From Acidobacteriota bacterium (GTDB lineage Bacteria; Acidobacteriota; Vicinamibacteria; Vicinamibacterales; JAFNAJ01), in contig JAHDVP010000025.1 of the NCBI GenBank assembly GCA_023384575.1, positions 1-48,068 of the forward strand: 48,068 bases of DNA. The letters are read 5' to 3'. How positions within the stretch are numbered: position 1 is the stretch's first letter; each line of letters opens with the position of its first letter. Both the position numbers and the translations under genes were made by a program. Shown here one piece after another: positions 14,358 to 45,046 of the stretch. The notes under the pieces are model-generated. The model searched no databases, had not been told where the DNA came from, and saw only the letters and a list, made by a program, of their open reading frames with translations.

Positions 14358-16166
14358 TCAGCCGCGCGACGCGGTCGTCGTCGCTCTCGGCCGGTACTGC
14401 TGCTCGAGCTCGTGGAAGAGCGCCTCGCGCACGAGCGTGATCGGGAGGAACCCGATCTTGTAGACGCGGTCGTGGAAGTCCTTGAGCGTGCCCTTCTGAT
14501 CGAGCTCGCGCATCTTCTTGAAGTAGTCCTCGCGCAGCAGCATCCACTCGAAGTAGCCCACCGTCGGCGCGCCCCACATGCTGCCGCGCTCGGTGATGCC
14601 GTCGATGTTGATCTGCGCGCCGCGGCGCACGAAGCCGATGCGTTCGTTCTCGAGCTGCAGTGCCTCGTCGTAGCCCATGCGCCCGGTGTGCAGGCCCGAG
14701 TCGATGATGACGCGCCCCATCCGCCACAGCTTCAGCCGCAGCATCTCGAGCGTGTACAGCTCCTGCTTGTCGGCCGGGTAGAAGCCGTAGTTCGGCGTCA
14801 GCTCCCATTCAATGTAGTAGCACCACGCCTGGTTCGAGTAGCTGCTCTCGTAGACGCGCAGCGGCCGGTGGTTGGCGTTCTGCCAGAGCCGCTGCAGGTG
14901 ATGCCCCGGGTACACCTCGTGGGTCGCGATCGCCCACATGAAGCTGTAGTCCTTCTCCGTCAGGTTCTCGTCGATGACCTGCTCGGGCCAGTCGGGGTTG
15001 GGCGGGATGACCGTCCAGGCCGCCTTGCGCGACGCCGACCCGGCCGGCACGCCAGGCCCCCAGCCCCACCACTGCGTCATCGACTGGTTCGGCGCCGCCG
15101 CCACCATGATCGCGTCGTCGTCGTCCCACGGGATCGAGACCAGGTCCTTTTCGATCACCCACTCGCGCGTCTTTCGCGTCGCCTCGTGGTGCGCGTAGAC
15201 CAGCGCCTCGGCGCTCGGGTGGTCCTGCTTCATGTCGCGGATGATCTGCAGCCACGTGCGCGTCGGATCGATCTTCCGCGCCTGCACCCGCATCGCCCGC
15301 TCGACGATGTTGAACTGCCGCCAGCCCCAGTCGTGATAGTTCGGCACCCGCGTGAAGCCCGGCATGCCCCGCGCGATCCGACGCAGGTTGAAGTCGTCTT
15401 CCGGGAACATGTGGCGCGTCTCGAGCAGCTTGTTGAACGTCTCGGCGCCCATCTGCCAGTTGCCGACGGGCTTGCGGGTCAGCTCGCCGGTGACGAAGCT
15501 CCGGAAGTCCTTGAGCGCGGCCACCGCCTTCTGGTTCTCGGCGAGCAGGGCGGCGCGCTGGTCGGGCGCCCGGTCGGCGAAGGCGGGCACCTGGCGCTCG
15601 AGGACGAGCAGGATGCCGTCGATCATGGGCAGGGTCAGCTCGTTCCAGCGCGGGATGTAGCGCACCAGGTTTTTCTTGCCGTTGGCGATGCGCGCCTCGA
15701 GGTGCTTCAGGTCGCCCACCATGTCCGCCGCCCGGGCCGACGGCGTGCGCGGGTCGGCGTCGAGGCGGTAGTTGAGCTGGGCGATGTTCAGGTAGACCCG
15801 CGGATCCATCTGCCAGTTCTTCACCCCCTCGCCGTCGATGATCGACGACTGCAGGATGCTCTGCAGGAAGCGGTAGTCGATGCTCTGGTCGAAGGTGAGC
15901 GCCTGCTGGTTGATCGCCTGCAGGTCCTTCAGGATGCGCCGGCGCGTCTCGAGGCTGCGCTCGAAGGACGCGGCGCTCAGGTCGCTCGGCTCGCGAGCCT
16001 CGCCGACGCCGCGCACCTCCTTGAGGTAGCGCGCCACCAGGTCCTCGAACGGCTGGTGGAGCGCCGGCTGCGCGAGGATCGCGCTCGAGGCCAGCCAGAG
16101 GCCGACCAGTAGTGCCAGGGTGCCGATGGCCATCTGCGGCCACCGGCGCGTCGTCGTTCGCTTCAT
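14358..16166 (-). CDS. Exported DUF885 protein, putative metallohydrolase (tandem copy A)
   Basis: A 602-residue DUF885 (PF05960) protein with a signal peptide ending near ILAQ (residue 33), so predicted periplasmic. The best catalytic candidate is the family motif HEVYPGHH (His416, Glu417, His422, His423), which looks like a metal-binding peptidase-type site. The substrate is unproven. The usual EGW box is QAW (NQAWCYYIEWELTP). The C-terminal region has RMGRVIIDSGLHTGRM and DFHDRVYKIG. It is third of three tandem paralogs after a TonB receptor gene. Nucleotides 14467-14783 are almost identical in all three. The gap to copy B is 81 bases. A peptidase role is inference. Confidence 0.88.
   Translation of the reverse strand: MKRTTTRRWPQMAIGTLALLVGLWLASSAILAQPALHQPFEDLVARYLKEVRGVGEAREPSDLSAASFERSLETRRRILKDLQAINQQALTFDQSIDYRFLQSILQSSIIDGEGVKNWQMDPRVYLNIAQLNYRLDADPRTPSARAADMVGDLKHLEARIANGKKNLVRYIPRWNELTLPMIDGILLVLERQVPAFADRAPDQRAALLAENQKAVAALKDFRSFVTGELTRKPVGNWQMGAETFNKLLETRHMFPEDDFNLRRIARGMPGFTRVPNYHDWGWRQFNIVERAMRVQARKIDPTRTWLQIIRDMKQDHPSAEALVYAHHEATRKTREWVIEKDLVSIPWDDDDAIMVAAAPNQSMTQWWGWGPGVPAGSASRKAAWTVIPPNPDWPEQVIDENLTEKDYSFMWAIATHEVYPGHHLQRLWQNANHRPLRVYESSYSNQAWCYYIEWELTPNYGFYPADKQELYTLEMLRLKLWRMGRVIIDSGLHTGRMGYDEALQLENERIGFVRRGAQINIDGITERGSMWGAPTVGYFEWMLLREDYFKKMRELDQKGTLKDFHDRVYKIGFLPITLVREALFHELEQQYRPRATTTASRG
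14467..14783 (-). repeat. 317-nt near-identical coding block, copy 1
   Basis: This encodes ~105 residues of the DUF885 C-terminal region, from FYPADKQELY to KDFHDRV. By eye I find a single base difference (a G-to-A near 14499 on the plus strand) from the blocks at 16348-16664 and 18184-18500. Flanking gene parts differ clearly, including at synonymous sites, so recent gene conversion is likely. Confidence 0.85.
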
Positions 16167-16247
16167 CGAATGCCCCTTTCTCCTGTCAATCGTCGCTCTC
16201 GGGCCACGGTCCGGCGTCGGGCCCCGGCGTTCCTCCGGTCGGCACGC

Positions 16248-18047
16248 CTACCCGGCCGTGGCCGCGCGTGGCCGGTACTGCTGCTCGAGCTCGTGGAAGA
16301 GCGCCTCGCGCACGAGCGGAATCGGAATGAACCCTATCTTGTACACGCGGTCGTGGAAGTCCTTGAGCGTGCCCTTCTGGTCGAGCTCGCGCATCTTCTT
16401 GAAGTAGTCCTCGCGCAGCAGCATCCACTCGAAGTAGCCCACCGTCGGCGCGCCCCACATGCTGCCGCGCTCGGTGATGCCGTCGATGTTGATCTGCGCG
16501 CCGCGGCGCACGAAGCCGATGCGTTCGTTCTCGAGCTGCAGTGCCTCGTCGTAGCCCATGCGCCCGGTGTGCAGGCCCGAGTCGATGATGACGCGCCCCA
16601 TCCGCCACAGCTTCAGCCGCAGCATCTCGAGCGTGTACAGCTCCTGCTTGTCGGCCGGGTAGAACCCCATCGTGGGCGTCAGCTCCCACTCGATGTAGTA
16701 GCACCACGCCTGGTTCGAGTAGTAGCTCGTCTCGTGGACGCGCAGCGGCCGGGGATTCTGGTTCTGATAGAGCCGCTGCAGGTGATGGCCCGGGTACACC
16801 TCGTGGGTCGCAATCGCCCACATGAAGCTGTAGTCCTTCTCGGTCAGGTTCTCGTCGACGACCTGCTCGGGCCAGTCGGGGTTGGGCGGAATGACCGACC
16901 ACGCCGCCTTGCGCGACGCCGAGCCGGCCGGCACGCCGGGCCCGAAGCCCCACCACTGCGTCATCGACTGGTTCGGCGCCGCCGCCACCATGATCGCGTC
17001 GTCGTCGTCCCACGGGATCGTGACGAGATCCTTCTCGATCACCCACTCGCGCGTCTTCCGTGTCGCCTCGTGATGGGCGAACACCAGCGCCTCGGCGCTC
17101 GGGTGGTCCTGCTTCATGTCGCGGACGATCTGCAGCCACGTGCGCGTCGGGTCGATCTTCCGGGCCTGCACCCGCAGCGCCCGCTCGACGATGTTGAACT
17201 GCCGCCAGCCCCAGTCGTGGTAATTCGGCACCCGCGTGAAGCCCGGCATCCCCCGCGCGATCCGCCGCAGGTTGAAGTCGTCTTCCGGGAAGAAGTAGCG
17301 CGTGCGCTGCAATTGGTTGAAGAGAGTCTCGCCAATGCGCCACTCGCCCTGCGGCGTGCGCGGCAGCTCGTTCGAGACGAACGCCCGGAACCCGCCGAGC
17401 GCCTCGAGGGCCTTCCGGTTCTCGGCGAGCAGGGCCGCGCGCTCGCCGGGCGCGCGGCTGGCGAAGGCTGGCACCTGTTCCGCGAGGATCTGCTCGATGC
17501 CGTCGATCATCGGCAGGGTGAGCTCGTTCCAGCGCGGCACGTGGCGCACGAGGTTCTTCCGCCCGTTCGCGATGCGCGCCTGCAGCAGCCGCAGGTCGGC
17601 AATCATGTCGGCCGCGCGCGCCACCGGCGCGCGCGGATCCGCCTCGAGCCGGTAGTTGAGCTGCGAGATGTTGAGATAGAGCCGGGGGTCCTGCTGCCAG
17701 TGCCTGACCTGCTCCGCCTCCGCGATCGAGGAGCGCAGGATGCCGTCCAGGAACCGGTAGTCGAGATCCTGATCGAAGCTGAGGGCCTTGCGGTCGATCG
17801 CCTCGAGGTCGCCGAGCACCTGGCGGCGCGTGGCCAGGTCGCGCTCGAAGGCCGCCGCGCTCATGTCGTCGGGCGCCCGCCCGCCGATGCCGCGCACCTC
17901 CTTCAGGTAGCGCGCCACGAGGTCCTCGAACGGCTGGTGGAGCGCGCCCTGCGCGACGAGCGCGCCTCCGGTCAGCCACGCGCCCACGGCGAGCGCCCCC
18001 CCGATCGCGGCCGCCAGCTGGCGGCCCCGGCTGCTTCGCTCGATCAC
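16248..18047 (-). CDS. Exported DUF885 protein, putative metallohydrolase (tandem copy B)
   Basis: A 599-residue paralog of copy A. The signal peptide is MIERSSRGRQLAAAIGGALA, ending near ALVAQ. It shares ALHQPFEDLVARYLKEVRG with copy A at the mature N-terminus and has the intact HEVYPGHHLQ motif and the QAW variant of the second box. Copies A and B are alike along most of their length (for example GMPGFTRVPNYHDWGWRQFN), so they are the most recent duplicates. It lies 36 bases after copy C and 81 bases before copy A, in an operon-like arrangement. Function as for copy A: exported hydrolase, probably acting on peptides, unproven. Confidence 0.88.
   Translation of the reverse strand: MIERSSRGRQLAAAIGGALAVGAWLTGGALVAQGALHQPFEDLVARYLKEVRGIGGRAPDDMSAAAFERDLATRRQVLGDLEAIDRKALSFDQDLDYRFLDGILRSSIAEAEQVRHWQQDPRLYLNISQLNYRLEADPRAPVARAADMIADLRLLQARIANGRKNLVRHVPRWNELTLPMIDGIEQILAEQVPAFASRAPGERAALLAENRKALEALGGFRAFVSNELPRTPQGEWRIGETLFNQLQRTRYFFPEDDFNLRRIARGMPGFTRVPNYHDWGWRQFNIVERALRVQARKIDPTRTWLQIVRDMKQDHPSAEALVFAHHEATRKTREWVIEKDLVTIPWDDDDAIMVAAAPNQSMTQWWGFGPGVPAGSASRKAAWSVIPPNPDWPEQVVDENLTEKDYSFMWAIATHEVYPGHHLQRLYQNQNPRPLRVHETSYYSNQAWCYYIEWELTPTMGFYPADKQELYTLEMLRLKLWRMGRVIIDSGLHTGRMGYDEALQLENERIGFVRRGAQINIDGITERGSMWGAPTVGYFEWMLLREDYFKKMRELDQKGTLKDFHDRVYKIGFIPIPLVREALFHELEQQYRPRAATAG
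16348..16664 (-). repeat. 317-nt identical coding block, copy 2
   Basis: By eye it is identical to 18184-18500 and has one difference from 14467-14783. The identity begins and ends abruptly inside the DUF885 reading frames. Confidence 0.85.
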
Positions 18048-18083
18048 CGGCTGCTCTCCCTCCGTGGCGGGCCTCGTGGCGTG

Positions 18084-19886
18084 TCAGCCCGCCGTCGACG
18101 CGCGTGGCCGGAAGTCGCGCTCGAGTTCGTGGAACAGCGCCTCGCGCACGAGCGTGACCGGCAGGAATCCGATCTTGTAGACCCGGTCGTGGAAGTCCTT
18201 GAGCGTGCCCTTCTGGTCGAGCTCGCGCATCTTCTTGAAGTAGTCCTCGCGCAGCAGCATCCACTCGAAGTAGCCCACCGTCGGCGCGCCCCACATGCTG
18301 CCGCGCTCGGTGATGCCGTCGATGTTGATCTGCGCGCCGCGGCGCACGAAGCCGATGCGTTCGTTCTCGAGCTGCAGTGCCTCGTCGTAGCCCATGCGCC
18401 CGGTGTGCAGGCCCGAGTCGATGATGACGCGCCCCATCCGCCACAGCTTCAGCCGCAGCATCTCGAGCGTGTACAGCTCCTGCTTGTCGGCCGGGTAGAA
18501 GTTGCGCGGCGGCGTCAGGTCCCACTCGATGTAGTAGCACCACGACTGGTTCGAGTAGCTGCTCTCGTAGACGCGCAGCCTGCGGGGGTTCTCGTTCTGG
18601 TAGAGCCGCTGCAGGTGGTGGCCGGGATAGGCCTCGTGGGTGGCGATGACCCACATGAAGCTGAAGTCCTTCTCGGTGAGGTTCGCGTCGATCATCTCGT
18701 CGGACCAGTCGGGGCTCGGCAGGATCATGGTCCAGCCCGACTTGCGCGACTTCGAACCGGCCGGCACGGTGCCCGCGAAGCCCCACCACTGCGCCATCGC
18801 GAAGCTCGGCGGCGCCGCCACCATGATGTCGTCGTCGTCGTCCCACGGAATGGTGACGAGGTCCTGCTCGATCGTCCACTCGCGGCTCTTCCGCGTGGCC
18901 TCGAGGTGCGAGTAGACGAGCCCTTCGAGCGGCGCGTGCTCCTGCTTCATGTCGCGGATGATCTGCAGCCAGCTCCGCGTCGGGTCGATCTTGCGCGCCT
19001 GCACCTCGAGCGCCCGCTCGACCACCCGGAACTGCCGCCAGCCCCAGTCGTGGTAGTTCGGCACGCGCGTGAAGTTCGGCGTGCCCCGCGCGATGCGACG
19101 GAGGTTGAAGTCGTCGTCGTCGAACAGGTACTTCTTCTCGTGGAGCGCGTTGAAGACGTCGGCCCCCACCTTCCAGTCGCCCTGGGGCTTGCGCGGCATC
19201 TCGGTCGTGAGGAAGGTCCGGAAGTCGGTGAGCGCCGCCGACGCCTTGCGGGCCTCGGTCTCAAGCGCCTGCCGGGCGCCGCCGCCGACGCGCCGCGCGA
19301 ACTGCGGGATCTCCCGGTCGACGATCGCGAGGGTGCCGTCGAGCATGGCGAGCGACAACTCGACCCAGCGCGGGATGTGCTCGGTCAGGTTCTTCTTCCC
19401 GTTGACCAGCCGCGCCTGGAGCAGCTTCAGCTCCTCGGTGATCTCCTGGGCGCGCACGGCCGGATCGCGGGGGTCGCTCTCGAGCCGGTACGAGATGGGC
19501 CGGGTGTTCAGGTAGACCCGGGGGTTCTGCTTCCACCGCGGCACCCGCTCGTCCTGGATGATGTTGCCCTCGAGGAGGCTCTTCAGGAAGCGGTAGTCGA
19601 TGTCCTCGTCGAACGACAGGCTGCGGCGATCGATGGCCTCGAGCTCCTTCAGCAGCCGCTTCTGCGTCTCGAGCTCCGAGGCGAACCGTCCGGCACTCAG
19701 GTCGTTGGGCGTGCTCCGCGCGCCGACGCCGCGCACCTCGAGGAGGTACTTGTCGATCAGCGCGTCGAACTGCGGGTTCGTCGTCTGGACGTGCACGAGG
19801 CCCGACGAGAGGGCCACGGCGGCCGCCGCGGCGAGCAGCGCCGCGCAGACGGTGCGCGTCCGGCCCGGAGTGCCTGTGCTGTGCAT
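18084..19886 (-). CDS. Exported DUF885 protein, putative metallohydrolase (tandem copy C)
   Basis: A 600-residue paralog beginning MHSTGTPGRTRTV with a signal peptide ending near GLVHVQ. I chose ATG 19886 because AGGGGAG lies upstream and the signal starts there; the longer frame is spurious. It has HEAYPGHHLQ and NQSWCYYIEWDLTP. The N-terminal half is clearly diverged from copies A and B, but the 317-nt block is identical to that of copy B. It is the first DUF885 gene after the TonB receptor, separated by ~195 bases that hold a 15-bp hairpin. Read-through from the receptor promoter is possible. Confidence 0.88.
   Translation of the reverse strand: MHSTGTPGRTRTVCAALLAAAAAVALSSGLVHVQTTNPQFDALIDKYLLEVRGVGARSTPNDLSAGRFASELETQKRLLKELEAIDRRSLSFDEDIDYRFLKSLLEGNIIQDERVPRWKQNPRVYLNTRPISYRLESDPRDPAVRAQEITEELKLLQARLVNGKKNLTEHIPRWVELSLAMLDGTLAIVDREIPQFARRVGGGARQALETEARKASAALTDFRTFLTTEMPRKPQGDWKVGADVFNALHEKKYLFDDDDFNLRRIARGTPNFTRVPNYHDWGWRQFRVVERALEVQARKIDPTRSWLQIIRDMKQEHAPLEGLVYSHLEATRKSREWTIEQDLVTIPWDDDDDIMVAAPPSFAMAQWWGFAGTVPAGSKSRKSGWTMILPSPDWSDEMIDANLTEKDFSFMWVIATHEAYPGHHLQRLYQNENPRRLRVYESSYSNQSWCYYIEWDLTPPRNFYPADKQELYTLEMLRLKLWRMGRVIIDSGLHTGRMGYDEALQLENERIGFVRRGAQINIDGITERGSMWGAPTVGYFEWMLLREDYFKKMRELDQKGTLKDFHDRVYKIGFLPVTLVREALFHELERDFRPRASTAG
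18184..18500 (-). repeat. 317-nt identical coding block, copy 3
   Basis: Third member of the conversion block. It sits in the most diverged of the three tandem genes, which makes the identity stand out. Confidence 0.85.
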
Positions 19887-20009
19887 CGTGTGCTCCCCTG
19901 CTGCCGGCGGGGCAGCGTCTGGCTTGCGTGGTGGGCAAGGGCTGCCGGGCTCCGCGCTCGGCGGTGGCCCGGTGACCTGCCCGGAGGTGCGATCGTGGGG
20001 TCGGCGCAC

Positions 20010-20043
20010 CGGGGGGTGGACGCCTGCGGGCGTCCACCCCCCG
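20010..20043 (-). terminator. 15-bp perfect hairpin after the first TonB receptor
   Basis: Arms 20010-20024 and 20029-20043 (GGGGGGTGGACGCC core) enclose a TGCG tetraloop, about 40 bases after the receptor stop on the minus strand. No T-run follows, so it may be an attenuator or an mRNA-stabilising stem between the receptor and the DUF885 genes. Confidence 0.5.
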
Positions 20044-20081
20044 TCGGCCAGCCGAACCGGGGCCCGGTGCCGGGCAGCGAA

Positions 20082-22898
20082 TCAGAAGTCGAACTTGATG
20101 CCGACGCGCGCCACGCGCGGCGTCAGCACCACCGTCGGGCGATCGTAGTTGCTCGCCGTCAGCACGCCGGCCGCGAGCACGTTGTTCGCGTTCAGCACGT
20201 TGAAGAGGTCGAAGATCCCCTCGAGCTTGTAGGTGCCGAAGCGGAAGATCTTCGCCGCGCGGAAGTCGAGCACGCTCACGCCCTTCTGGCGGTAGCTGCC
20301 GTTCTCCTCGACCCGGATCTGGTAGAGCGCGTTGGTGGTCGTGTCGCGCACCTGCACGGTCCTCGCCATCGGAGACGCGCCGGCCGCCCCGGCCGTGAAG
20401 CTGTTGAGGCCGCTCGTGAAGCGGTAGGCGAGCGACGTATTGATCTGCCCGGGCATCATGTAGCCGGCCTGGAGGCGGAGGAGCCGCTTGGCATCGAGTC
20501 CGGCCGCGCCCTCGGGGAAGATCTCGTCGTCGTTGCGGTTCAAGTAGCCACCGACGCGCCCGTAGTTGTCCTGGAGCGTCAGCGAGCCGCGCGCCAGCCA
20601 GCGCCCGTCGAACCGCCGGTCGAAGACGATGTCGACGCCGTGGTACCGGGTCTTGTTGCTGTCGAACTGCGTGAGGATGATGTTATTGCGGATCGGCCCG
20701 AGGCCGGGCGTCACCGACCAGTAGTTGATCGTCGAGCCGGTGAGCGGGTCGACGGCCGTGCTCGGCACCGTGAAGCGATCGTTCTGCAGCGCGAGGTCGT
20801 CCTCGGCGAGGACCAGGTCGTTCGTGCGGTAGGTGTAGCGCACCGAGACCGACATCCGCTGGCCGATCGCCTGCTCGATGGCCGTGCTGATCTCGTCGGA
20901 GTAGGGCGACTTCAGGTCGGGCGAGATCGCGCCGCGCGCCGCCGGGATGCTGATCGACCGGAGCTGACCGAACTCGTTGCGCTGCGGGTAGTTGTCGCCG
21001 TTGGTGTCGACCCAGTCGAAGCGCGCCTCGGCCACGCCGTTGCTGTTGGCCGTGCCGTTGATGCGGTTGCCCTCGATCTGGTTGAAGTACCGGCCGAAGG
21101 TCGCCTTGACGACCGTCCGGCTGTTGCCCGAGACGTCGTAGACGAGACCCAGCCGCGGCGACCACGTCGTCCACCCCATCAAGTCCTTCCGCTCGTCGAA
21201 CGACTTCGCGCCGCCGAAGATATCGGCGAACTCGGCCGGGTTGTTCGACTGCGCCGGCAGCCAGCCCGTCCAGTCCTCGAAGCGCACGCCCATCGTCGCC
21301 GTCAGCCGGCCCCAGCGCGCCGAGTCCTGGATGAAGGCCATCAACGCCCGGTTCTTCGCGTTGCGCTCGACCGGCGTGTTGTACACCCAGACCTGGGCCG
21401 GGACGCCGTTGCGGTAGATGCGCTGCAGGTGGCCGTTGCGCGTGATGGTCTCGGGCACCTCGCCGTAGCGGTACTCGAGGCCGACCTTGAAGTCGTGCGA
21501 CGCGTTCAGCAGACGGTCCTGGAAGAACGACAGGTTGGTGCGCGCCGTCCTCATCTGGCCCCGCTGGAAGAAGTTCTGCGGCGCCGCGTCCGAGCGGATG
21601 CGCGTGATCTCGTCGAACGCCGTCGTCTTGTCGCCGACTTCCGAGCGGTAGCGCAGCGGGAAGGGCGACTCGAGCTGGCCGTAGCTCGCCTCGAGGATCA
21701 TCGTCGACGACAGGATGCGATCGTACCGGCCCTGGATGATCGTGTGTGCGCCGTCCTGCAGGTACGAGGCCTCGGGCCGGATGAACTGCGAGATGTCGCG
21801 GTTCGGCATCAGCTTCTGGCCCCACTCGTAGAAGAACAGGAAGCGGTTGGCCGGGTTGGTCTGCGCGTTGAGCTTGCCGGTGTAGTTGCGCAGGCGCGAC
21901 TCGTTGGTGCACTTCGACCCGTCCGGAAGGAAGCAGTTGAGCACGTACGGCAGCACGCTGTAGTTGCGGAACGCGCCGAACCACCACAGGTGGTCGCGCA
22001 CGATCGGGCCGCCCGCCTGGGCCGTGAAGTCCTTCAGCGACTCGAGCGGCGACCCCTCGGTGAGCACCCCGCGCGACCGCAGGTCGTCGTCGACGTTGGT
22101 CGACATCATCGCGTCGTTCTCGTAGTAGAAGCCCACCATCCCCGCGAGGCGGTTGCTGCCGCTCTTCACCACCTGGTTGATGATGAGGCCGCCGCGGCTG
22201 TGCTCGGCCGAGATGCCGGAGGTCGACACCTGAACCTCCTCGAAGGCGTCGGTGCTCATGTAGCCCGCGCCGAGGTTGTCCTGGTGCATCAGCGTCATGT
22301 CGATGCCGTTGATGTTGTGCTGCACGGCCGACGCGCCCGAGCCGTGCACCGACATCGACGAGAGCTGCGTGCTCTCGAACCCCCCGACGTTCTCACGCGG
22401 GACGACGAGGCCGGGCACCTGCTGGACGGTGTTCCACAAATCGCGAGACGAAGGGATCATCTCGAGGATTTCCTTCGTCACCGTCGCGCCCGACTGGGTG
22501 CTGCGCGTGTCGACGATGGGGCTCTCGCCCGAGACGGTGATCGATTCCTCGACCGTCGCCACGCCGAGCTGCCGGTCGAGCGTCAGCCCGAGGCCGACGT
22601 TGATGCGCAGGTTCTCGACGACGGCGGTCGCGAAGCCCTGAAGCTCGAAGCGGATGGTGTAGAGGCCTGGCGGCAGCGACGGGAACCGGTAGAGCCCCTC
22701 GCCGGAGGTGACGGCCACGAGGCTACCGCCCATCACGGCGCTGCTCTCGGCGGTCACGGCGACCCCGGGCAACGCGCCGCCCGTGTTGTCGGTGACGCGC
22801 CCTTGCAGCGACCCGGTGTCGGCGGCCTGGGCCCACAGAGGGCCGGCGAGCGCGAGACTCAGCGCGAGCCCACGAAGCAAGGACAGACATACCCGCAT
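20082..22898 (-). CDS. TonB-dependent receptor with carboxypeptidase-regulatory-like domain (1)
   Basis: A 938-residue outer-membrane receptor. The signal peptide ends near LWAQA. Residues ~28-110 form the beta-sandwich regulatory-like domain (GSLQGRVTDNTGGALPGVAV). A plug follows (IVDTRSTQSGATVTKEILEMIP, FEEVQVSTSGISAEHSRGG), then a ~22-strand barrel ending in VGIKFDF with a terminal aromatic residue. Such Oar-like receptors take up large ligands, using TonB energy from the inner membrane. The specific ligand is unknown. GAGGGGGG precedes the ATG. Three DUF885 genes lie downstream on the same strand, suggesting import and processing of related substrates. A good promoter and palindrome lie upstream. 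Confidence 0.92.
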   Translation of the reverse strand: MRVCLSLLRGLALSLALAGPLWAQAADTGSLQGRVTDNTGGALPGVAVTAESSAVMGGSLVAVTSGEGLYRFPSLPPGLYTIRFELQGFATAVVENLRINVGLGLTLDRQLGVATVEESITVSGESPIVDTRSTQSGATVTKEILEMIPSSRDLWNTVQQVPGLVVPRENVGGFESTQLSSMSVHGSGASAVQHNINGIDMTLMHQDNLGAGYMSTDAFEEVQVSTSGISAEHSRGGLIINQVVKSGSNRLAGMVGFYYENDAMMSTNVDDDLRSRGVLTEGSPLESLKDFTAQAGGPIVRDHLWWFGAFRNYSVLPYVLNCFLPDGSKCTNESRLRNYTGKLNAQTNPANRFLFFYEWGQKLMPNRDISQFIRPEASYLQDGAHTIIQGRYDRILSSTMILEASYGQLESPFPLRYRSEVGDKTTAFDEITRIRSDAAPQNFFQRGQMRTARTNLSFFQDRLLNASHDFKVGLEYRYGEVPETITRNGHLQRIYRNGVPAQVWVYNTPVERNAKNRALMAFIQDSARWGRLTATMGVRFEDWTGWLPAQSNNPAEFADIFGGAKSFDERKDLMGWTTWSPRLGLVYDVSGNSRTVVKATFGRYFNQIEGNRINGTANSNGVAEARFDWVDTNGDNYPQRNEFGQLRSISIPAARGAISPDLKSPYSDEISTAIEQAIGQRMSVSVRYTYRTNDLVLAEDDLALQNDRFTVPSTAVDPLTGSTINYWSVTPGLGPIRNNIILTQFDSNKTRYHGVDIVFDRRFDGRWLARGSLTLQDNYGRVGGYLNRNDDEIFPEGAAGLDAKRLLRLQAGYMMPGQINTSLAYRFTSGLNSFTAGAAGASPMARTVQVRDTTTNALYQIRVEENGSYRQKGVSVLDFRAAKIFRFGTYKLEGIFDLFNVLNANNVLAAGVLTASNYDRPTVVLTPRVARVGIKFDF

Positions 22899-22963
22899 GA
22901 TCGAACCCCCCTCGGAAGGAACAGGTCTTGCCGGACGGCGACAGATCTGGTCGGACGAGGTCG

Positions 22964-22993
22964 ATTGTCGAGGGACCGTAACCGCGCTGTCAA
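22964..22993 (-). promoter_or_regulatory. Promoter of the first TonB receptor
   Basis: On the minus strand TTGACA (22993-22988), an 18-base spacer and GACAAT (22969-22964) lie about 65 bases before the start codon. A palindrome sits 6 bases upstream of the -35. The remainder of the 347-base gap 22899-23245 holds the palindrome at 23086 and the terminator of the next gene. Confidence 0.55.
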
Positions 22994-22999
22994 GATTTT

Positions 23000-23019
23000 T
23001 TTACTGGCGAGTCAGTAAA
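23000..23019. promoter_or_regulatory. Palindromic operator candidate TTTACTG-N6-CAGTAAA
   Basis: Perfect 7-bp arms around GCGAGT, just upstream of the receptor -35. The size and symmetry suit a dimeric regulator, for example of the TetR family. Its AT-rich composition stands out from its surroundings. Confidence 0.5.
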
Positions 23020-23085
23020 TCTTTGTCTCCCGTTGGCGCCCACCGGGCAGACTTCGCGCGCACGCGGCGCCCTCGCCTCACATTG

Positions 23086-23101
23086 CTGACCGAGTGGTCA
23101 G
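23086..23101. promoter_or_regulatory. Palindrome CTGACC-GAGT-GGTCAG
   Basis: Perfect 6-bp arms with a 4-base centre. The GACC-N4-GGTC core recurs at 44769-44780 and, with one change, at 44918-44933, both also at TonB receptor promoters. Confidence 0.45.
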
Positions 23102-23180
23102 TCCACACGCGCTTCGACCGACTTCGCCGGACGCGCGCGACCCCGGGCCGCGAGGCGGCGACGTGGCGGGATCCGCCTCC

Positions 23181-23229
23181 GGCGGCCCTTCCGGTTCCCG
23201 GGGTCCCGGGACCGGCCGGAGGGGCCGCC
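23181..23229 (-). terminator. Hairpin after the fourth DUF885 gene
   Basis: Arms 23181-23194 and 23216-23229 pair with one G-T wobble around a second small CCCGGG repeat. It starts 16 bases after the stop at 23246. No T-run is present. Confidence 0.45.
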
Positions 23230-23245
23230 AGACACGGCGAGGCGA

Positions 23246-25051
23246 TCAGCCGCGCGGGGCCGGAGGCCCGAACTCGCGGTCGAGCTGCTGGAAGAGCTCG
23301 TCGCGCACCAGCGTGACCGGAATGAACCCGATGTTGTAGACCCGATCGTGAAAGTCCTTCAGCGTGCCCTTCTGGTCGAGCTCGCGCATCTTGTTGAAGT
23401 AGTCGTCGCGCAGCTGCATCCACTGGAAGTAGCCCACCGTGGGCGCCGCCGTGCCCGTGCCGCCGCCCATGATGCCGTCGATGTTGATCTCCGCCCCGCG
23501 CCGGACGAAGCCCGTGCGTTCCGACTCGACCTTGACCGCGTCCTCCCAGCTCATGCGCCCGGTGTGCAGCCCCGAGTCGATGATGACGCGCCCCATGCGC
23601 CAGAGCTTGAGGCGCAGCACCTCGAGGCTGTAGAGATCCTGCTTGTCCTTCGGGAAGTACCCGTAGTCGGGATCGGGCGTGAGCTCCCATTCCACGTAGT
23701 AGCACCAGCCCTGGTCGGAGTAGCTCGACTCGTACACCCGCAGCTTGCGGGGGTTCCGGTGGCGGTAGAGCCGCATCAGGTGGTGCCCGGGATAGGCCTC
23801 GTGCGGGCCGATCGCGTACATGAAGCTCCAGTCCTTCTCGGTCAGGTTCTCCTCGGCCACGTCATCCGACCAGTCGGGATGAATCGGGATGATCGGCCAG
23901 GCCATCTTCTTCGACTGGTGCCCCGCCGGCAGGTAGCCGGGCCCGAAGCCCCACCACTGCGACGCCGACAGGCTCGGATCGGACGCCACCATGATGTGGT
24001 CGTCGTCTTCCCAGGGAATCGTCACGAGGTCGTTCTTGATCGTCCAGTCGCGCGACAGCCGCGCGACCTTCATGCCCTCGTACACCAGTTGCTCGGCAAA
24101 CGGGTGGTTGCGCTTCATGCGCTTGATCTGCTGGAGCCACGGGGTCGACGGGTCGATCTCGGCCGCCTTCGCCTCGAGCGCCCTCTCGACGATCTGGTAC
24201 TGCTTCCAGCCCCAGTCGTGGTACTCGGGCACGCGCGTGAAGTTCGCCGAGCCCCTGGCAATCGTGCGCAGCCCCAGCTCCGAGGCCGGAAGCTGGTGCC
24301 GGTGCTCGTGGAGGTAGTTGTAGAGGTCGGCGCCAATCCGGAAGTCGCCCTCGGGCCGCTTGGTCCACTCGTCGTTGACGAAGGTCCGGAAGCCGCGCAG
24401 GGCCTCGATGGCCCGTTCGGTCTCGGCGAGCAGCTCGCCGCGCAGGTCGGGGCTGAGACGGGCGGCGAAGGTCGGAATCGAGTCCTGGAAGTGCAGGATC
24501 GAGCCGTCGATGCGCGCGTTGGCGTACTGCAGCCACTGCGGGATGTACTGCGTCAGGTTGATCTTCCCGTTGCGAATGCGGGCCTGCAGCGTCTTCATGT
24601 CGTTGACGAGCGCGCGGCCCCGCTCCTCCGGATGCCGGTGGTCGCCCTGCATCTTGAAGGTGATCGGGTTGGTCTCGACGTAGCGGCGCGGGTCCTGCCG
24701 CCAGCGCTGCACGGTCTCGGCCTCGCGGATGTTCGACCGCAGGATGCCGAGCAGGAACCGATGGTCGGTCGTCTGCTCGACGGTGAGCTTCGACGCGTCG
24801 AACGCCTCGAGCTCACCGAGCAGCCGCTTCTGCGTCTCGAGGCTCTGCGCAAACGCCGCCTCGCTCATGTCGGAGGGCAGGTCGCCGCCGACGCCGCGCA
24901 CCTCGCGCAGGTACTTGTCGATGAACGCCTCGAAGGCGGGGTCGAGGCCCGCGCCCGTCCCGGCCGCCGGCCCCGCGGCCGGCGCGCAGCCGGCGACCGC
25001 GACCGCCAGCACGAGCCCTGCAATCAACGACGCTCTCGATCGACGTGGCAT
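23246..25051 (-). CDS. DUF885 lipoprotein, putative metallohydrolase
   Basis: A 601-residue DUF885 protein that begins MPRRSRASLIAGLVLAVAVAGC, a lipoprotein signal with Cys22, so it is probably anchored to a membrane. It keeps HEAYPGHHL and the C-terminal RMGRVIIDSGLHTGRM, with QGW (YSDQGWCYYVEWELTP) in place of EGW. It belongs with the three tandem copies but lacks their identical block. GGAGGAGG precedes ATG 25051; the longer frame is spurious. It is third in a minus-strand operon after another DUF885 gene and a PQQ dehydrogenase (61-base gap). The enzymatic activity is inferred only from the motif. Confidence 0.88.
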   Translation of the reverse strand: MPRRSRASLIAGLVLAVAVAGCAPAAGPAAGTGAGLDPAFEAFIDKYLREVRGVGGDLPSDMSEAAFAQSLETQKRLLGELEAFDASKLTVEQTTDHRFLLGILRSNIREAETVQRWRQDPRRYVETNPITFKMQGDHRHPEERGRALVNDMKTLQARIRNGKINLTQYIPQWLQYANARIDGSILHFQDSIPTFAARLSPDLRGELLAETERAIEALRGFRTFVNDEWTKRPEGDFRIGADLYNYLHEHRHQLPASELGLRTIARGSANFTRVPEYHDWGWKQYQIVERALEAKAAEIDPSTPWLQQIKRMKRNHPFAEQLVYEGMKVARLSRDWTIKNDLVTIPWEDDDHIMVASDPSLSASQWWGFGPGYLPAGHQSKKMAWPIIPIHPDWSDDVAEENLTEKDWSFMYAIGPHEAYPGHHLMRLYRHRNPRKLRVYESSYSDQGWCYYVEWELTPDPDYGYFPKDKQDLYSLEVLRLKLWRMGRVIIDSGLHTGRMSWEDAVKVESERTGFVRRGAEINIDGIMGGGTGTAAPTVGYFQWMQLRDDYFNKMRELDQKGTLKDFHDRVYNIGFIPVTLVRDELFQQLDREFGPPAPRG

Positions 25052-25112
25052 GTGTCCTCCTCCCGAAAGCCGGTCCCTCGACGCGCCCGGCACATGCCGG
25101 CGTCGCCGTCTC

Positions 25113-27422
25113 TCATGTCGTCCGTCGGCCGCGCCGCGCGACCCAGACGCCGCCGATGCCGCCCGCCAGCCCGCCGACGAGCGCCCAGGCCCACGCCGGC
25201 ACCCCCGGCGGAGGCGCCGGCGGGGCGTCCGGCAACGCGAAGACGAAGATCGCGTTCTGCCCCTGCGGCGGCTTGATCTCGGGGTGCAGCGACAGCACCC
25301 GCTTCTCGGGCGACGCCGTGTCGCCACCGGCCGGAATGGCCAGATACTGGCGCCCGTCGACGGCATAACTGATCGGGTGGCCGGTGGGCGGTCCGCTGAG
25401 CGCGGTCTCCCACAGCACCTCCCCCGTCGTGTCGTCGAAGCCGTAGAACCGCCGGTTCACGTCGCCGCCGAACACCACGCCGCCCGCAACGGCGAGCAGG
25501 CTGCCAATCATGCCGGCGCGCTGCTCGTACACCCAGGCCGTCCGCCCGGTCGACGCCGAGATCGCATCGACGCGGCCGATCATGCCCGGCGTCGCCTTCG
25601 GGTCGTCGACCATCACCCAGCTCGTCGCGTAGCCGTCGGCGGGCATCGGCCGGTCGGTGTTGCCGGTGAGCAGCATGCACATGTTCTGCTGCGGCTGGTA
25701 CATCAGCCCCGTCAACGGGCTGTAGGCGCCGGTGGGCCAGTCCTTGCCGCCCCCGAGCGAAGGACACACGAGCTGCTCCTCGAAGGGGCCGACGATGCGC
25801 GACTCGTCGATCGTCACGCGGCCCGTCGCCGGATCGATGTCACGGACGACGTTCTGGTGAATCGTCTCGCGCGCCCAGAGGAACTCGCCCGTCTCGCGGT
25901 CGAGCGTGTAGACGATGCCGGTCTTGCCGGGAATACCGGTGACCACGCGCCGCGTCTCGCCCGGGGTCAGCGCGGGGTTGATCCAGCGCACCTCGGCCGG
26001 GTCGGGCGCGACGGCCGTGTCGACGAGCACGCGCTCGAAGACGTGATCGAGGTCCCAGTTGTCGCGCGGCAGGTGCTGGTAGTACCACTTCACGCGCCCG
26101 GTCTCGACGTCGATGGCCAGCGTGGCGTTCGAGAACAGCACGTCCTGCCCCGGCGTCCCACGCAGCCCCTCGAGCGACGGCGCGGGCACGGACGTGCCCC
26201 AGTAGACCAGCTTGAGCGCCGGATCGTAGCTGCCCGTGCCCCACGCGCCGACGTGCAGGCGCTGCTCGTAGGGCAGGCCGCCCCACGTCTCGTCGCCCGG
26301 TTCGCCCGGGCGCGGGATGAGCCGCACGCGCCACAGCTCGCGCCCGTCGTCGGGCGCATGCGCCGCGATGTAGCAGATCTCGGGGCCGCCCGTCGCGGCG
26401 CACGACCGGCCGCTCACGATCTTCCCGTCGGCGACCATCGGCCCGGCCATGTGGCCGATGCCGCGACCCGCCTCGGGCACCGCCCACGCCTGCACGCCGG
26501 TTCGCGCGTCGAGCGCCACGAGGTGGTTGTCGCGCGTGAAGTGGAAGAGCCGATCGCCGAGGATGGCGATGTTGCGCACGCTGCGGTAGCGGGCGCGTCC
26601 GGCCGCCCCGGCCGGTGCCCTCGGCGCGGCGTCGGCCCGCGCGGCGGGCGGCTCCCAGCGCCACTCCCAGATCAGATCGCCGTCTGTTGCGTCGAGCGCC
26701 TGGATCACGTCGCCCGGGTGCGCCAGGTACATCGCGCCGCGGTGCACGAGCGGCGTGCTGTACTGGCCGCCGGGCTCCATCGCGCGCGACCACGCCAGCC
26801 GGAGCGTCGCCACGTTGTCGCGCGTGATGTCGGCGAGCGGGCTGAAGGCCCAGGCATCGTGCGTGCGCCGGAAGTTGAGCCAGTCCTCGGGCGGCGGATC
26901 GTCGAGCCTCTCCTGCGTGACCGGCTCGAAGCCCTCGACCTCGCCCTGCGCCAGCGCGTGGAGCTCGACGCCCTTGAGGCCGGGCCGGCTCAGGCTCCGC
27001 GTGAACGCGACCAGATCCACGAGCGCCTGCCCGCGGACGTGCGGGAACGCGGGCATCTGAAAGCCGCCCGCCTGAATCTTCGCCGCGAGGTCGGCGTCGG
27101 TGAGCCCGTCCATGTAGCGCAGCGACGTCTGGTCGGCCGGCCGGGCCGAGAGGCCGGCCGCCGCGGGACCGTCGCCACGCCCGCCCTCGCCGTGGCAGAG
27201 CGCGCATTGCTCCTGGTACGCCCGCGCGCCGCGCGCGATCGCCTCGGCGTCGACGGCGACGAGCGGCGGCGCCGGGCCCCGCCGCGGCGGCGGAGGCAGC
27301 CGCTCGGCCGGCGTCGGCTGGGCCCGCACGACCGACACGCCGTGCCAGGCACCCGCCAGCGCCGCCGCTATCCCCAGGGCGGTCAGGACGCGCACGAATC
27401 TCGGCCGGGCGTTCGTCGTCAT
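25113..27422 (-). CDS. PQQ-dependent dehydrogenase with N-terminal cytochrome c domain
   Basis: A 769-residue exported quinohemoprotein candidate. After a signal peptide (ending ~SVVRAQ) comes a cytochrome c domain with heme motif CALCH (Cys73, Cys76, His77) and a likely axial Met in GGFQMPAFP. From ~residue 155 an eight-bladed PQQ propeller begins (DWLNFRRTHDAWAFSPL, WYYQHLPRDNWDLDH, GGVVFGGDVNRRFYGFDDTTGEVLWE). The adjacent-cysteine pair of methanol dehydrogenases is not seen. The last ~28 residues are a hydrophobic segment ending RRGRR, probably an anchor. It would oxidise an alcohol or aldehyde in the periplasm and pass electrons to its own heme. It overlaps the upstream DUF885 stop by four bases. 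Confidence 0.88.
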   Translation of the reverse strand: MTTNARPRFVRVLTALGIAAALAGAWHGVSVVRAQPTPAERLPPPPRRGPAPPLVAVDAEAIARGARAYQEQCALCHGEGGRGDGPAAAGLSARPADQTSLRYMDGLTDADLAAKIQAGGFQMPAFPHVRGQALVDLVAFTRSLSRPGLKGVELHALAQGEVEGFEPVTQERLDDPPPEDWLNFRRTHDAWAFSPLADITRDNVATLRLAWSRAMEPGGQYSTPLVHRGAMYLAHPGDVIQALDATDGDLIWEWRWEPPAARADAAPRAPAGAAGRARYRSVRNIAILGDRLFHFTRDNHLVALDARTGVQAWAVPEAGRGIGHMAGPMVADGKIVSGRSCAATGGPEICYIAAHAPDDGRELWRVRLIPRPGEPGDETWGGLPYEQRLHVGAWGTGSYDPALKLVYWGTSVPAPSLEGLRGTPGQDVLFSNATLAIDVETGRVKWYYQHLPRDNWDLDHVFERVLVDTAVAPDPAEVRWINPALTPGETRRVVTGIPGKTGIVYTLDRETGEFLWARETIHQNVVRDIDPATGRVTIDESRIVGPFEEQLVCPSLGGGKDWPTGAYSPLTGLMYQPQQNMCMLLTGNTDRPMPADGYATSWVMVDDPKATPGMIGRVDAISASTGRTAWVYEQRAGMIGSLLAVAGGVVFGGDVNRRFYGFDDTTGEVLWETALSGPPTGHPISYAVDGRQYLAIPAGGDTASPEKRVLSLHPEIKPPQGQNAIFVFALPDAPPAPPPGVPAWAWALVGGLAGGIGGVWVARRGRRTT

Positions 27423-29179
27423 GGGCGTGGCATCGGGGTGCGGTCGGCCAGCAGGCGCCGGGCGTGCTCACCACGTCCTGTCATCTCCCAGCGCGTGAGC
27501 TCGAGGGGCACCCAGGCGGCCTCGACGAGTTCATCGTGGAACGCGCGCAGGCTGAAGCGGTCGCCGAGCTGCTGCCTGCGCTCGCCGAGCAGCCGCTCGA
27601 TCTGCATCTTGCCGATCTGGTAGACGATGCCGCCGGTCGGCGCGGCGAAGAAGTCGTCGGCCTCCTCGCTCGCGATGCGGCGGTCCATCGGGACGGTCAT
27701 GAGCGCGGTCGTCCCCTCGTCGGCCGTCATCTCGCCGAGAGCCATCTTCACGTCGATGATCACGCGCAGCGCGCGCAGGCGGAGGAAGTTGTAGATCAGC
27801 TCCCGGCTGCGCGGCCGATCGTCGTAGAAGCCGAGCTGCAGGGCGGTCTCTTCCCAGTAGGTCGACCAGCCCTCGCTCTTGAACCGCTCGGTGTGGCGCG
27901 ACCGGATGGGCGAGGGATGCCTGCCCGAGACGACGCCCTGGAAGTGATGGCCCGGGATGCCGTCGTGGAAGATGTTCGTGCTCGCGTCGACGCGCATGAT
28001 GGCCTCCCAGTACGTGTCGACGTACGGGTGGTCCTCGGGTACGGAGTACTTCATGGCGCCGTTGCCGGGCATCGAGTAGCCGCTCAGGCCGGCCCAGAGC
28101 GAGAAGGCCACCATGTAGGGCGGCATCAGCGTCCGGCGATAGGGCCCGACGAACTCCGGGATCGTCAGCACGTCCTTGTCGACGAGGAACCGGCGGATCT
28201 TCTTCTCGTCGGCCTCGGTCATGGCGGCGTACTCGGCGGTCGTCGCCGCCCGCCGCGGCACGGGCAGGCCGCGGTTGCGCGCTTCCTCGAACGCGGTGAA
28301 CGACAGGTAGCGTCCGTATTCCTGCTCGCCGAACTGCAGGATCTCGCCGGCGTCGTACGGCAGCAGCCACACGCGGCGCAGGAGCCAGTCGTACAGCGCG
28401 CGCCCCACCGGCTGCGCCCTGACCATGGTGGGCAGCCTGGCCTCGATCCACGCGCGGTAGTCCTCGAAGGCCGCGCCCATGGCCTCGGCCGCCGGCCCGA
28501 GCTCCGCCGCGAGCGCGGGCGGGAAGTGGGGCGCGAGCGTCTCGGCGAACCGACGGCTGCTCTCGCGGGCGCCGGCGAGCGTCGGCAGGGCCCAGCGCGA
28601 CATCTCCTGCGTCGGCTCGGTGAGATTCGCCTTCGCCTGATCGAGGATGCGCGGGATGTTGCGCATGTGATCGAGCACGGCGCGGGCGCGCGCCTCGTCA
28701 AACGGCGCCGGCTGGCGCACGAGCTGCCCGAGCCGGCTGAGGGTCGCGCCGCTCGACAGGCCGAAGGAGGAGATCGACGACAGGTAGAAGTTCGGACTGC
28801 GCGACGTGGCGCGGTACACGTGCAGGCCGTAGTCGAGCATGTCGAGCGACGAGCGGACGATGAGGTAGTCGACCTGATCGCCAACGGGCCAGGCGCCGGG
28901 GTCGAGGCGATCGAATCGCCCGCGCAGCTCCGCCAGGCTGGCCTTCTGCCGCTCGACGGCCGCAGGCGTGTAGTCGGGGATGCCGTCGACGAGCGCCGGC
29001 TGGCGCAGCGCGCGCGCCGCGTCGAAGATCTCGACGAGCTCGGGCCGTGCGGCGAACGTCGCCGCCTGGCTGACAGCGAGCACCGCCACGGCGCCGGCGG
29101 TGGCCAGGCCGGCGGTGACGAGGGCGACGGCCGAGGCGCGAACGGCCGGGCGACGGCCGCCGGAACGCGGGCCAATCAT
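27419..29179 (-). CDS. Exported DUF885 protein with variant metal motif (HD)
   Basis: A 586-residue member of the second DUF885 subgroup. An N-terminal hydrophobic signal (ALVTAGLATAGAVAVLAVSQA) starts from ATG 29179; an upstream extension is unlikely. The core motif is HDGIPGHH (His405, Asp406, His411, His412), with Asp in place of Glu, and the EGW box (SEGWSTYWEE) is present. The C-terminal GIVYQIGKMQIERLL and FHDELVEAAWVPL fit the family. It is the first gene of an operon with the PQQ dehydrogenase (4-bp overlap) and the DUF885 lipoprotein. It is divergent from the DUF885 gene at 29338, with palindromes between them. The enzyme is probably an exported hydrolase; substrate unknown. Confidence 0.86.
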   Translation of the reverse strand: MIGPRSGGRRPAVRASAVALVTAGLATAGAVAVLAVSQAATFAARPELVEIFDAARALRQPALVDGIPDYTPAAVERQKASLAELRGRFDRLDPGAWPVGDQVDYLIVRSSLDMLDYGLHVYRATSRSPNFYLSSISSFGLSSGATLSRLGQLVRQPAPFDEARARAVLDHMRNIPRILDQAKANLTEPTQEMSRWALPTLAGARESSRRFAETLAPHFPPALAAELGPAAEAMGAAFEDYRAWIEARLPTMVRAQPVGRALYDWLLRRVWLLPYDAGEILQFGEQEYGRYLSFTAFEEARNRGLPVPRRAATTAEYAAMTEADEKKIRRFLVDKDVLTIPEFVGPYRRTLMPPYMVAFSLWAGLSGYSMPGNGAMKYSVPEDHPYVDTYWEAIMRVDASTNIFHDGIPGHHFQGVVSGRHPSPIRSRHTERFKSEGWSTYWEETALQLGFYDDRPRSRELIYNFLRLRALRVIIDVKMALGEMTADEGTTALMTVPMDRRIASEEADDFFAAPTGGIVYQIGKMQIERLLGERRQQLGDRFSLRAFHDELVEAAWVPLELTRWEMTGRGEHARRLLADRTPMPRP

Positions 29180-29241
29180 GATTTCAACCCCATGGTAGAA
29201 TTCCTGCCACGCGGGCGTGGCGCGAGCGTGTCGGTGTGGAC

Positions 29242-29271
29242 CTTGTAACGGTCCCTCCTCGGACTTGTCAA
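29242..29271 (-). promoter_or_regulatory. Promoter of the DUF885-PQQ operon
   Basis: TTGACA (29271-29266), an 18-base spacer and TACAAG (29247-29242) read leftward, about 60 bases before ATG 29179. An AGAAG-N6-CTTCT inverted repeat (29271-29286) touches the -35. Confidence 0.45.
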
Positions 29272-29287
29272 GAAGTTTCACCTTCTA

Positions 29288-29337: not shown

Positions 29338-30999
29338 GTGACCGTCTCGCCGTCAGCGACCGCCCGCCGGCTCGCCGCCGCCCTCCTGTCGCTCGTGACC
29401 GCCGCCTGCGGGGCCTCCGCGCCGCCCGCGGCGCCGCCGCCGAGCACCGACTACGACGAGCTCGTCGCTCTCTTCCGCGAGTTCCGCGACGCCGTCACGC
29501 CCAGGATCGTCGACGGCGTCCCCGACTACACCGACGCCGCGATGGCCGCCGAGCACCGGGCCGTGCAGGCGTTCGCGCGTCGTCTCGACGCGATCGATCC
29601 GTCGGGCTGGCCGATCGACCGGCAGGCCGACCACCTGCTCGTGCGGGCCGAGATGCGGGCGGTCGACTTCCACCACCGCGTCCTCAGGCCGTGGCGGCGC
29701 GATCCGTCGTACTACCAGACGGTGTCGCTCAGCTTCGGCCCGAAGATCGCCGGGGCCTTCGCCATCCCCACCTTCCCGCTGGCCGACGACGCGGTGGCCC
29801 CCTTTCAGGCGAAGCTGCGGGCGGTACCACGAATCTTCGACCAGGCCCGGAGCCACCTCACCGAGGTGCCGCGCGATCTCGCGCTGATTGGCGTCCGCCA
29901 GAAGCGCATCGAGGTCAACGTGTACCGCCGCATCGTCGAGGGCGTGGCCGAGCACCATCCCGCGCTGCGCCCGGACGCCGAGCGCGCGCGCGACGCCGCC
30001 GAGGGGTTCCTCGGCTGGCTCGAGGACGTCGCCGGACGCGCCAGCGGCTCGTCGGGCATCGGCAAGGACGACTACAACTGGTACGTCCGCTACGTGCTGC
30101 TCGTGCCGTACACGTGGGACGAGATGCGCCTCATCGGCGAGCGCGAATACGAGCGGGCGATGATGCGGCTGAAGATCGAGGAGCACCGGAACCGGCGCGA
30201 GCCCATGACCGAGCCCGCCGCGACGCTCGAGGAGTTCGAGCGCCGGCGCGAGGAGGCCGACGCGGCGCTCGTCGCCTTCCTGCGCGACGAGCGGATCTTC
30301 ACGGTGCCCGACGACCTCGTGCCGCGGCGCAACGAGGGGCCGTACGTCCTGCCCGCCGATCGCGACCCGACCTCGCCCGGCCCCTTCGACCCGCCGATCC
30401 GGCGGCACTTCTTCCGGCAGACGGAGGACCGCGAACCGCTGCCGCTCAGGGCCCACAACGTGCCGGGACACCTGCTCGACACGCTGATGCGCCGGCGCGA
30501 CGACCGGCCGATTCGTGGGACGTCCCGCCTCTCGCACATCGACGGCGGGCGCCTCGAGGGGTGGGCCTACTACCTCGAGGAACTGATCGAGCAGGGCGGG
30601 CTGCTCGCCGACCGGCCCAAGGCGCGCGAGGTGAACTACATCCTGATGGCGAAGCGCGCGGCCCGCATCCTGCCCGAGATCATGATGCACGGCCGCGACT
30701 GGACGTTCGACGAGGCCGTCGAGTCGATGACGAGCCGCACGCCCTACTGGATGGCCCCAGACGACCCGATTGCGCTCTACGACCTCGAGCTGTACCTCCG
30801 GCAGCCCGGGCTCGGCATCGGGTACCCGATCGGCAAGGTGCAGTTCGAGCAGTTGATGACCGACCATGCGCGGCAGCTCGGCCCCGACTTCGACCTCACC
30901 GCGTTCCACGACGAGTTCCTCGCGGCCGGCCTGATTCCGATCTCGCTCATCCGCTGGCAGATGACGGGGATGGACGACCAGGTGCGGTTCATGCGGTAG
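29338..30999 (+). CDS. DUF885 lipoprotein with degenerate metal motif
   Basis: A 553-residue member of the second DUF885 subgroup. A GTG start follows GAAGGAGG. The signal is a lipobox type, SLVTAAC with Cys24. In place of HExxPGHH it has AHNVPGHL (372-379), so the first His is Ala and the second His of the pair is Leu. The second box EGWAYYLEE is intact and GYPIGKVQFEQL is present. Loss of metal ligands may mean a changed or lost activity, although the frame is complete and well conserved. It shares RIVDGVPDYTDAA at the N-terminus with the divergent DUF885 protein (LVDGIPDYTPAA), so the two are ancient duplicates. Confidence 0.85.
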   Translation: MTVSPSATARRLAAALLSLVTAACGASAPPAAPPPSTDYDELVALFREFRDAVTPRIVDGVPDYTDAAMAAEHRAVQAFARRLDAIDPSGWPIDRQADHLLVRAEMRAVDFHHRVLRPWRRDPSYYQTVSLSFGPKIAGAFAIPTFPLADDAVAPFQAKLRAVPRIFDQARSHLTEVPRDLALIGVRQKRIEVNVYRRIVEGVAEHHPALRPDAERARDAAEGFLGWLEDVAGRASGSSGIGKDDYNWYVRYVLLVPYTWDEMRLIGEREYERAMMRLKIEEHRNRREPMTEPAATLEEFERRREEADAALVAFLRDERIFTVPDDLVPRRNEGPYVLPADRDPTSPGPFDPPIRRHFFRQTEDREPLPLRAHNVPGHLLDTLMRRRDDRPIRGTSRLSHIDGGRLEGWAYYLEELIEQGGLLADRPKAREVNYILMAKRAARILPEIMMHGRDWTFDEAVESMTSRTPYWMAPDDPIALYDLELYLRQPGLGIGYPIGKVQFEQLMTDHARQLGPDFDLTAFHDEFLAAGLIPISLIRWQMTGMDDQVRFMR

Positions 31000-44968: not shown

Positions 44969-45046
44969 ACGGATCATCCAGTTGAGTCACCAATGGGCGA
45001 GGGCTTGCGCTACCGCGACCGCTCGTCCGGCCTGGGGAGGTTGGGT

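What the first reader, a model, noticed from the sequence alone, without database searches (positions are those of the whole stretch)
14467..18500. A 317-nt block kept identical among three tandem DUF885 genes
Seen: 14467-14783, 16348-16664 and 18184-18500 differ by one base by eye, including all synonymous sites, while the sequences on both sides diverge abruptly. It codes for the C-terminal region with the GLHTGRM element. Inference: recent gene conversion homogenising this part. Alternatives are strong selection at RNA level or assembly collapse of a repeat longer than the reads.
Basis: seen in the sequence. Interest (0 to 1): 0.6.

Follow-up and report, generated by a model that had tools for sequence, protein, structure and literature searches.

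The report
Gene conversion in tandem DUF885 genes
Three neighbouring copies of a predicted secreted, protease-like gene share one stretch of about 300 bases that is practically identical while the rest of the genes has drifted far apart, most simply because the copies recently overwrote each other by ordinary recombination (gene conversion); it is a clean but ordinary example, and the perfect identity still needs long reads because the assembly could have hidden a few differences.

Summary
They lie in the 3' part of three tandem minus-strand DUF885 genes. Silent divergence is 0.014-0.028 inside the block and 0.29-0.39 outside (Fisher p 2e-8 to 1e-12). The RNA-selection alternative is refuted: at the same codons a fourth paralog in the window and relatives from other bacteria differ at 28-53% of silent sites, and the RNA has no unusual fold. 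Recent gene conversion, at least two transfers, is the best explanation. A tandem pair of the same family in a gammaproteobacterium has its own smaller exact tract (191 nt, adjoining), so such exchange is not confined to this genome. Assembly collapse cannot create the block but could have polished it: three scaffold gaps in this genome are flanked by exact 55-base repeats, typical of a k=55 SPAdes-type assembly, and the one retained difference sits 33 bases from the block edge, where collapse could not remove it. No genus-mate genome was held, so sister loci could not be inspected. Ordinary mechanism, new instance; interest low.

The parts
14358..16166 (-). Gene A: DUF885 protein, 602 aa, with N-terminal hydrophobic (signal-like) segment
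   Evidence: ORF; PF05960 E=6.8e-37
16248..18047 (-). Gene B: DUF885 protein, 599 aa
   Evidence: ORF; PF05960 E=4.6e-38; AlphaFold model pLDDT 86.6 matches DUF885 crystal structures 3u24, 3o0y, 3iuk
18084..20009 (-). Gene C: DUF885 protein, up to 641 aa (start probably further in)
   Evidence: ORF; PF05960 E=2.4e-35
14467..14783 (-). Homogenised block, copy in gene A (284 nt exact plus one synonymous difference at 14499)
16348..16664 (-). Homogenised block, copy in gene B (317 nt identical to copy C)
18184..18500 (-). Homogenised block, copy in gene C
14499..14499 (.). Only difference among the three blocks: GAT in A, GAC in B, C, D and all relatives compared; derived in A
15062..15136 (-). 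Possible older, shorter A/B exchange: 75-nt exact run (residues 343-368), uniform-null p 0.002 but site-permutation global p 0.11
23246..25366 (-). Gene D: fourth paralog of the same subfamily, not homogenised (83% over the block)

Best explanation
The three tandem direct copies of one DUF885 subfamily diverged long ago, and then a ~0.3-kb internal stretch (residues 462-567 of gene B, the C-terminal helices after the HEVYPGHH motif) was copied between them by ordinary homologous recombination without exchange of the flanks, i.e. ectopic gene conversion. Three equal copies need at least two transfers (one donor to two recipients, or in series). Shown: the tract, its boundaries, the silent-site contrast, the phylogenetic contrast. 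Inferred: that the events were non-reciprocal and recombinase-dependent, and that they are recent (no silent difference between B and C inside the 317 nt, ~70 silent sites). Donor and direction cannot be told. Nothing indicates selection for the homogenisation; the tract may lie in the protein's more conserved half simply because recombination needs local identity.
For: Silent divergence inside against outside the block: A/B 0.014 vs 0.290 (p 1.9e-8), A/C 0.028 vs 0.347 (p 3.1e-9), B/C 0.014 vs 0.391 (p 1.4e-12). Runs of 53-57 matching informative sites, permutation p 2e-4, the smallest possible with 5000 draws. A, B, C form one near-zero-length cluster in the block tree (support 98), while in the N-terminal tree C falls outside A+B and a Chromatocurvus gene (support 67-89). 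No other exact repeat of 100 nt or more in 867 kb of the same genome; another paralogous pair at 81.6% identity there has a longest exact run of 56 nt. An independent case: the tandem pair in L016 (Gammaproteobacteria MAG) has a 191-nt exact run at residues 407-469 with silent divergence 0.026 vs 0.237 elsewhere (p 0.0014). The flanks are coherent: A and B are closest over the 90-nt tail and in the body beyond 300 nt, so the three paths through the repeat were probably joined correctly. Conversion between duplicated bacterial genes, with contiguous tracts, a mean walk of ~500 nt in the model fitted without mismatch repair, and shorter tracts with it, is measured for tuf in Salmonella (PMC5485169).
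Against: The genome looks like a k=55 short-read assembly, so exact identity in the interior is not proved. No sister genome carries the array, so timing relative to speciation is unknown. GC3 is 0.95-0.97, which lowers the number of truly free silent sites, though it does so outside the block too. Flank agreement right next to the block (right 120 nt) does not favour A+B, and support for the N-terminal branching is moderate.
Confidence: 0.88

Rival explanations
1. Assembly artefact: the copies are similar but not identical, and a short-read assembler collapsed the differences into one consensus placed three times.
For: Three 100-N gaps in the same genome are flanked by exact 55-nt repeats, i.e. 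a SPAdes-type assembly with k=55; 317 nt exceeds usual short reads; the only retained difference lies 33 nt from the edge, within one k of a unique flank, where a bulge cannot form. metaSPAdes is documented to collapse larger bulges than SPAdes (PMC8021871).
Against: A bulge needs shared 55-mers at both ends; outside the block only one other A/B run reaches 55, so the true copies must already be locally near-identical. The contig passes through all three copies with coherent flanks. So collapse could polish the block but not create it.
Confidence: 0.07
2. Selection on the nucleotide sequence (RNA structure, regulatory element or overlapping code) keeps the block identical.
For: Silent divergence in the block is somewhat lower than outside in some cross-species pairs, e.g. 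L015/L019 0.38 vs 0.61.
Against: Paralog D differs from A, B, C at 20-22 of ~70 silent sites in the block and relatives at 0.32-0.53. No Rfam family. RNA folding no better than shuffles, z +0.91.
Confidence: 0.01
3. Recent unequal crossing-over or recent duplication produced the copies.
For: Tandem direct repeats favour unequal exchange.
Against: A single crossover or a fresh duplication leaves at least one flank of each new copy identical to its parent; here both flanks are 10-25% diverged in all pairs.
Confidence: 0.03

Closest known systems
Ectopic gene conversion of duplicated tuf genes in Salmonella (PMC5485169)
   Same: Contiguous internal tract copied between paralogs on one chromosome
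   Different: tuf copies are far apart, inverted and nearly identical throughout; here tandem, direct, strongly diverged, one main tract
Long-lasting concerted evolution in prokaryotes (PMC6053082; 26 genes such as tuf, psbA, amo/hao)
   Same: Paralogs more alike within a genome than to relatives, by conversion
   Different: Those are alike over nearly the full gene and in at least five species; here only ~18% of the gene and one genome, with one smaller independent case elsewhere. DUF885 is not among the 26
DUF885 (PF05960), placed in clan Peptidase_MA according to PMC12572635; structures 3u24, 3o0y, 3iuk
   Same: Family of the encoded proteins
   Different: The genes tested match no NCBIfam model and have only 14-16% identity to the solved structures

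Membership tests
Gene conversion between paralogs | Tract of near-zero silent divergence bounded by diverged sequence on both sides | tested here: met
Gene conversion between paralogs | Phylogenetic conflict between tract and rest of gene | tested here: met
   block cluster support 98, N-terminal splits support only 67-89
Gene conversion between paralogs | Non-reciprocal transfer, donor unchanged | not testable with these tools
   needs sister genomes or experiment
Long-lasting concerted evolution | Same paralogs homogenised in several related species | tested here: inconclusive
   No genus mates held; array absent from the other 161 genomes searched in the order; one separate case in L016 with a different tract
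Long-lasting concerted evolution | Homogenised over nearly the full gene | tested here: not met
   317 of ~1800 nt
DUF885 (PF05960) | Score above Pfam gathering cut-off | tested here: met
   123-133 bits against 32.4
DUF885 (PF05960) | Fold of solved members | tested here: met
   3u24 TM 0.71-0.77, E 1.8e-16
Peptidase (clan MA) | Zinc-dependent peptidase activity | not tested
   HEVYPGHH motif at residue 415 seen; no activity data

The most novel reading that the evidence does not exclude
Tandem DUF885 arrays in unrelated bacteria repeatedly homogenise the same C-terminal third while the N-terminal part diversifies, a partial concerted evolution that keeps one module common and lets the other vary. 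Support is thin: one independent tract in L016, and contig ends of relatives in four other genomes that cluster at residues 453-477, the 5' edge of the block, as if assemblers break there.
Probability: 0.12. Interest if true: 0.45.

Novelty: new member of a known kind. Interest (0 to 1): 0.22.

Why it matters
It is a clean, statistically strong case of intragenic gene conversion between diverged tandem paralogs, in a family of unknown function. If the partial homogenisation recurs across DUF885 arrays it would show which half of the protein is free to diversify, and it warns that trees built on whole DUF885 genes mix two histories. It also illustrates how short-read assemblies can hide differences or break at such tracts.

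Tried and rejected
RNA element: Rfam negative and folding z-score +0.91, and silent sites free in D and relatives. Sister genomes: none in the genus; 40 relatives, 162 of the order and 396 of the phylum gave only one truncated relative, nearest to D. Viral contigs: none. Contig-end lead: searched the assemblies of G521, G522, G519 and G035 with two of the broken ends (G521, G035); no identical second copy found, so paralog collapse there is unproved. Donor: trees cannot tell. Literature on DUF885: no functional study seen among the 12 papers listed.

Full report
Observation. The three stretches were compared base by base. 16348-16664 and 18184-18500 are identical over 317 nt; 14467-14783 differs from both only at 14499. 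On the coding (minus) strand this is GAT in gene A and GAC in B, C, the fourth paralog D and all nine relatives compared, so it is a synonymous, probably derived change in A. The next 120 nt on the 5' side of the genes are 80-83% identical and the 30 nt on the 3' side 21-26 of 30. If the differences among the three genes were scattered evenly, the longest invariant run would be about 19 nt and never exceeded 50 in 20,000 draws; 284 is observed.

Setting. The genes are tandem, all on the minus strand: A 14358-16166, B 16248-18047, C 18084-20009, all DUF885 (PF05960). D (23246-25366) is a fourth member of the same subfamily, separated from C by a TonB-type outer-membrane receptor gene (20082-22898); further DUF885 genes lie at 27419-29281, 29338-30999 and 40103-41749. 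The block is residues 462-567 of B: C-terminal helices 465-494, 499-510, 514-527, 533-554 and part of 561-571, after the helix with HEVYPGHH (residue 415), in an AlphaFold model of mean pLDDT 86.6 that matches the DUF885 crystal structures 3u24, 3iuk and 3o0y. DUF885 is placed in the peptidase clan MA according to PMC12572635; activity is not tested here.

Silent divergence. By codon, silent differences per silent site are A/B 0.014 inside and 0.290 outside, A/C 0.028 and 0.347, B/C 0.014 and 0.391 (Fisher p 1.9e-8, 3.1e-9, 1.4e-12). The one 'inside' difference of B/C is in the edge codon 567. At the same codons D differs from A, B and C at 0.28-0.31 of silent sites, and eight gene copies from other genomes at 0.32-0.53. 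So the region is free to change at silent sites, and the identity of A, B and C is not due to constraint on the nucleotide sequence. The RNA strand folds no better than shuffles (z +0.91) and no Rfam family matches. GC3 is 0.95-0.97 in A, B and C, so silent sites are fewer in effect than the counts suggest, but inside and outside alike.

Trees. In residues 80-400, A and B are closest, with a Chromatocurvus halotolerans gene (L015) next and C outside, at supports of 67-89; in the block A, B and C form one cluster of almost zero length with support 98. Both flanks of each copy are diverged, which a recent duplication or single crossover would not leave. Gene conversion, at least twice, explains this. 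A 75-nt A/B run at 15062 may be an older tract but is not significant by the site-permutation test (p 0.11).

Recurrence. The nearest relatives found are gammaproteobacterial, several in tandem pairs. One pair (L016) has a 191-nt exact run at residues 407-469, silent divergence 0.026 against 0.237 elsewhere (p 0.0014), while the same codons compared with L020 and L017 are ordinary. The L017 pair shows no such tract. Contigs of four other genomes end inside the gene at residues 453, 458, 460-464 and 477, next to the block's 5' edge; this could mean that assemblers stop at homogenised blocks, but searches with two of the broken ends found no identical second copy. It stays a lead.

Assembly. In 867 kb of the same genome there are fourteen gaps, thirteen of them of 100 N; three are flanked by an exact 55-nt direct repeat, the mark of a de Bruijn assembly with k=55 (inference). 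No other exact repeat of 100 nt or more occurs there apart from runs of N. metaSPAdes collapses bulges aggressively (PMC8021871), so isolated interior differences among copies could have been merged, and the one surviving difference lies 33 nt from the block edge, where merging is impossible. But collapse requires shared 55-mers, which the diverged flanks lack, so the local near-identity is real even if its perfection is not proved. Whether the source is an isolate or a metagenome bin was not told.

Known background. Conversion with contiguous tracts between duplicated genes is measured in Salmonella tuf (PMC5485169), and long-lasting concerted evolution is known for 26 prokaryotic genes (PMC6053082), over nearly the whole gene; DUF885 is not among them. 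The case here is an ordinary mechanism in a new place.

Noticed in passing
G000:C8:33344-33562 (L130:13344-13562) and 45 further matches in the genome; partial copy at C25:68575-68666, beyond the window: A dispersed repeat of about 219 nt, up to 97% identical, with 52-nt imperfect terminal inverted repeats (77%) beginning TTAGA and ending TCTAA: looks like a MITE. No Rfam match; several contigs end in it.
   Followed up: partly
G000:C8:143681-143869 (L136:3681-3869) and 39 further matches: A second dispersed family of about 189 nt, 80-98% identical, with short terminal inverted repeats (16 nt, 81%); no Rfam match.
   Followed up: partly
14358-25366: This DUF885 subfamily is nearly absent from the genome's own order and phylum (one other genome among those searched) and its nearest relatives are gammaproteobacterial, up to 71% identical: a patchy distribution that suggests horizontal transfer.
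   Followed up: partly
L018, L021, L022, L024 (G519, G521, G522, G035): Contigs of four other genomes break at residues 453-477 of the homologous gene, at the 5' edge of the homogenised block.
   Followed up: partly
16170-23018 (+): A 2282-codon open frame antisense to genes B, C and the receptor gene; in a 70% GC window with GC3 of 0.95 this is most likely a by-product of codon bias.
   Followed up: no
41837-44689 (-) and 44993-47956 (+): Two divergently oriented outer-membrane receptor paralogs, about 75% identical at the DNA level over 0.9 kb, without a homogenised tract.
   Followed up: no
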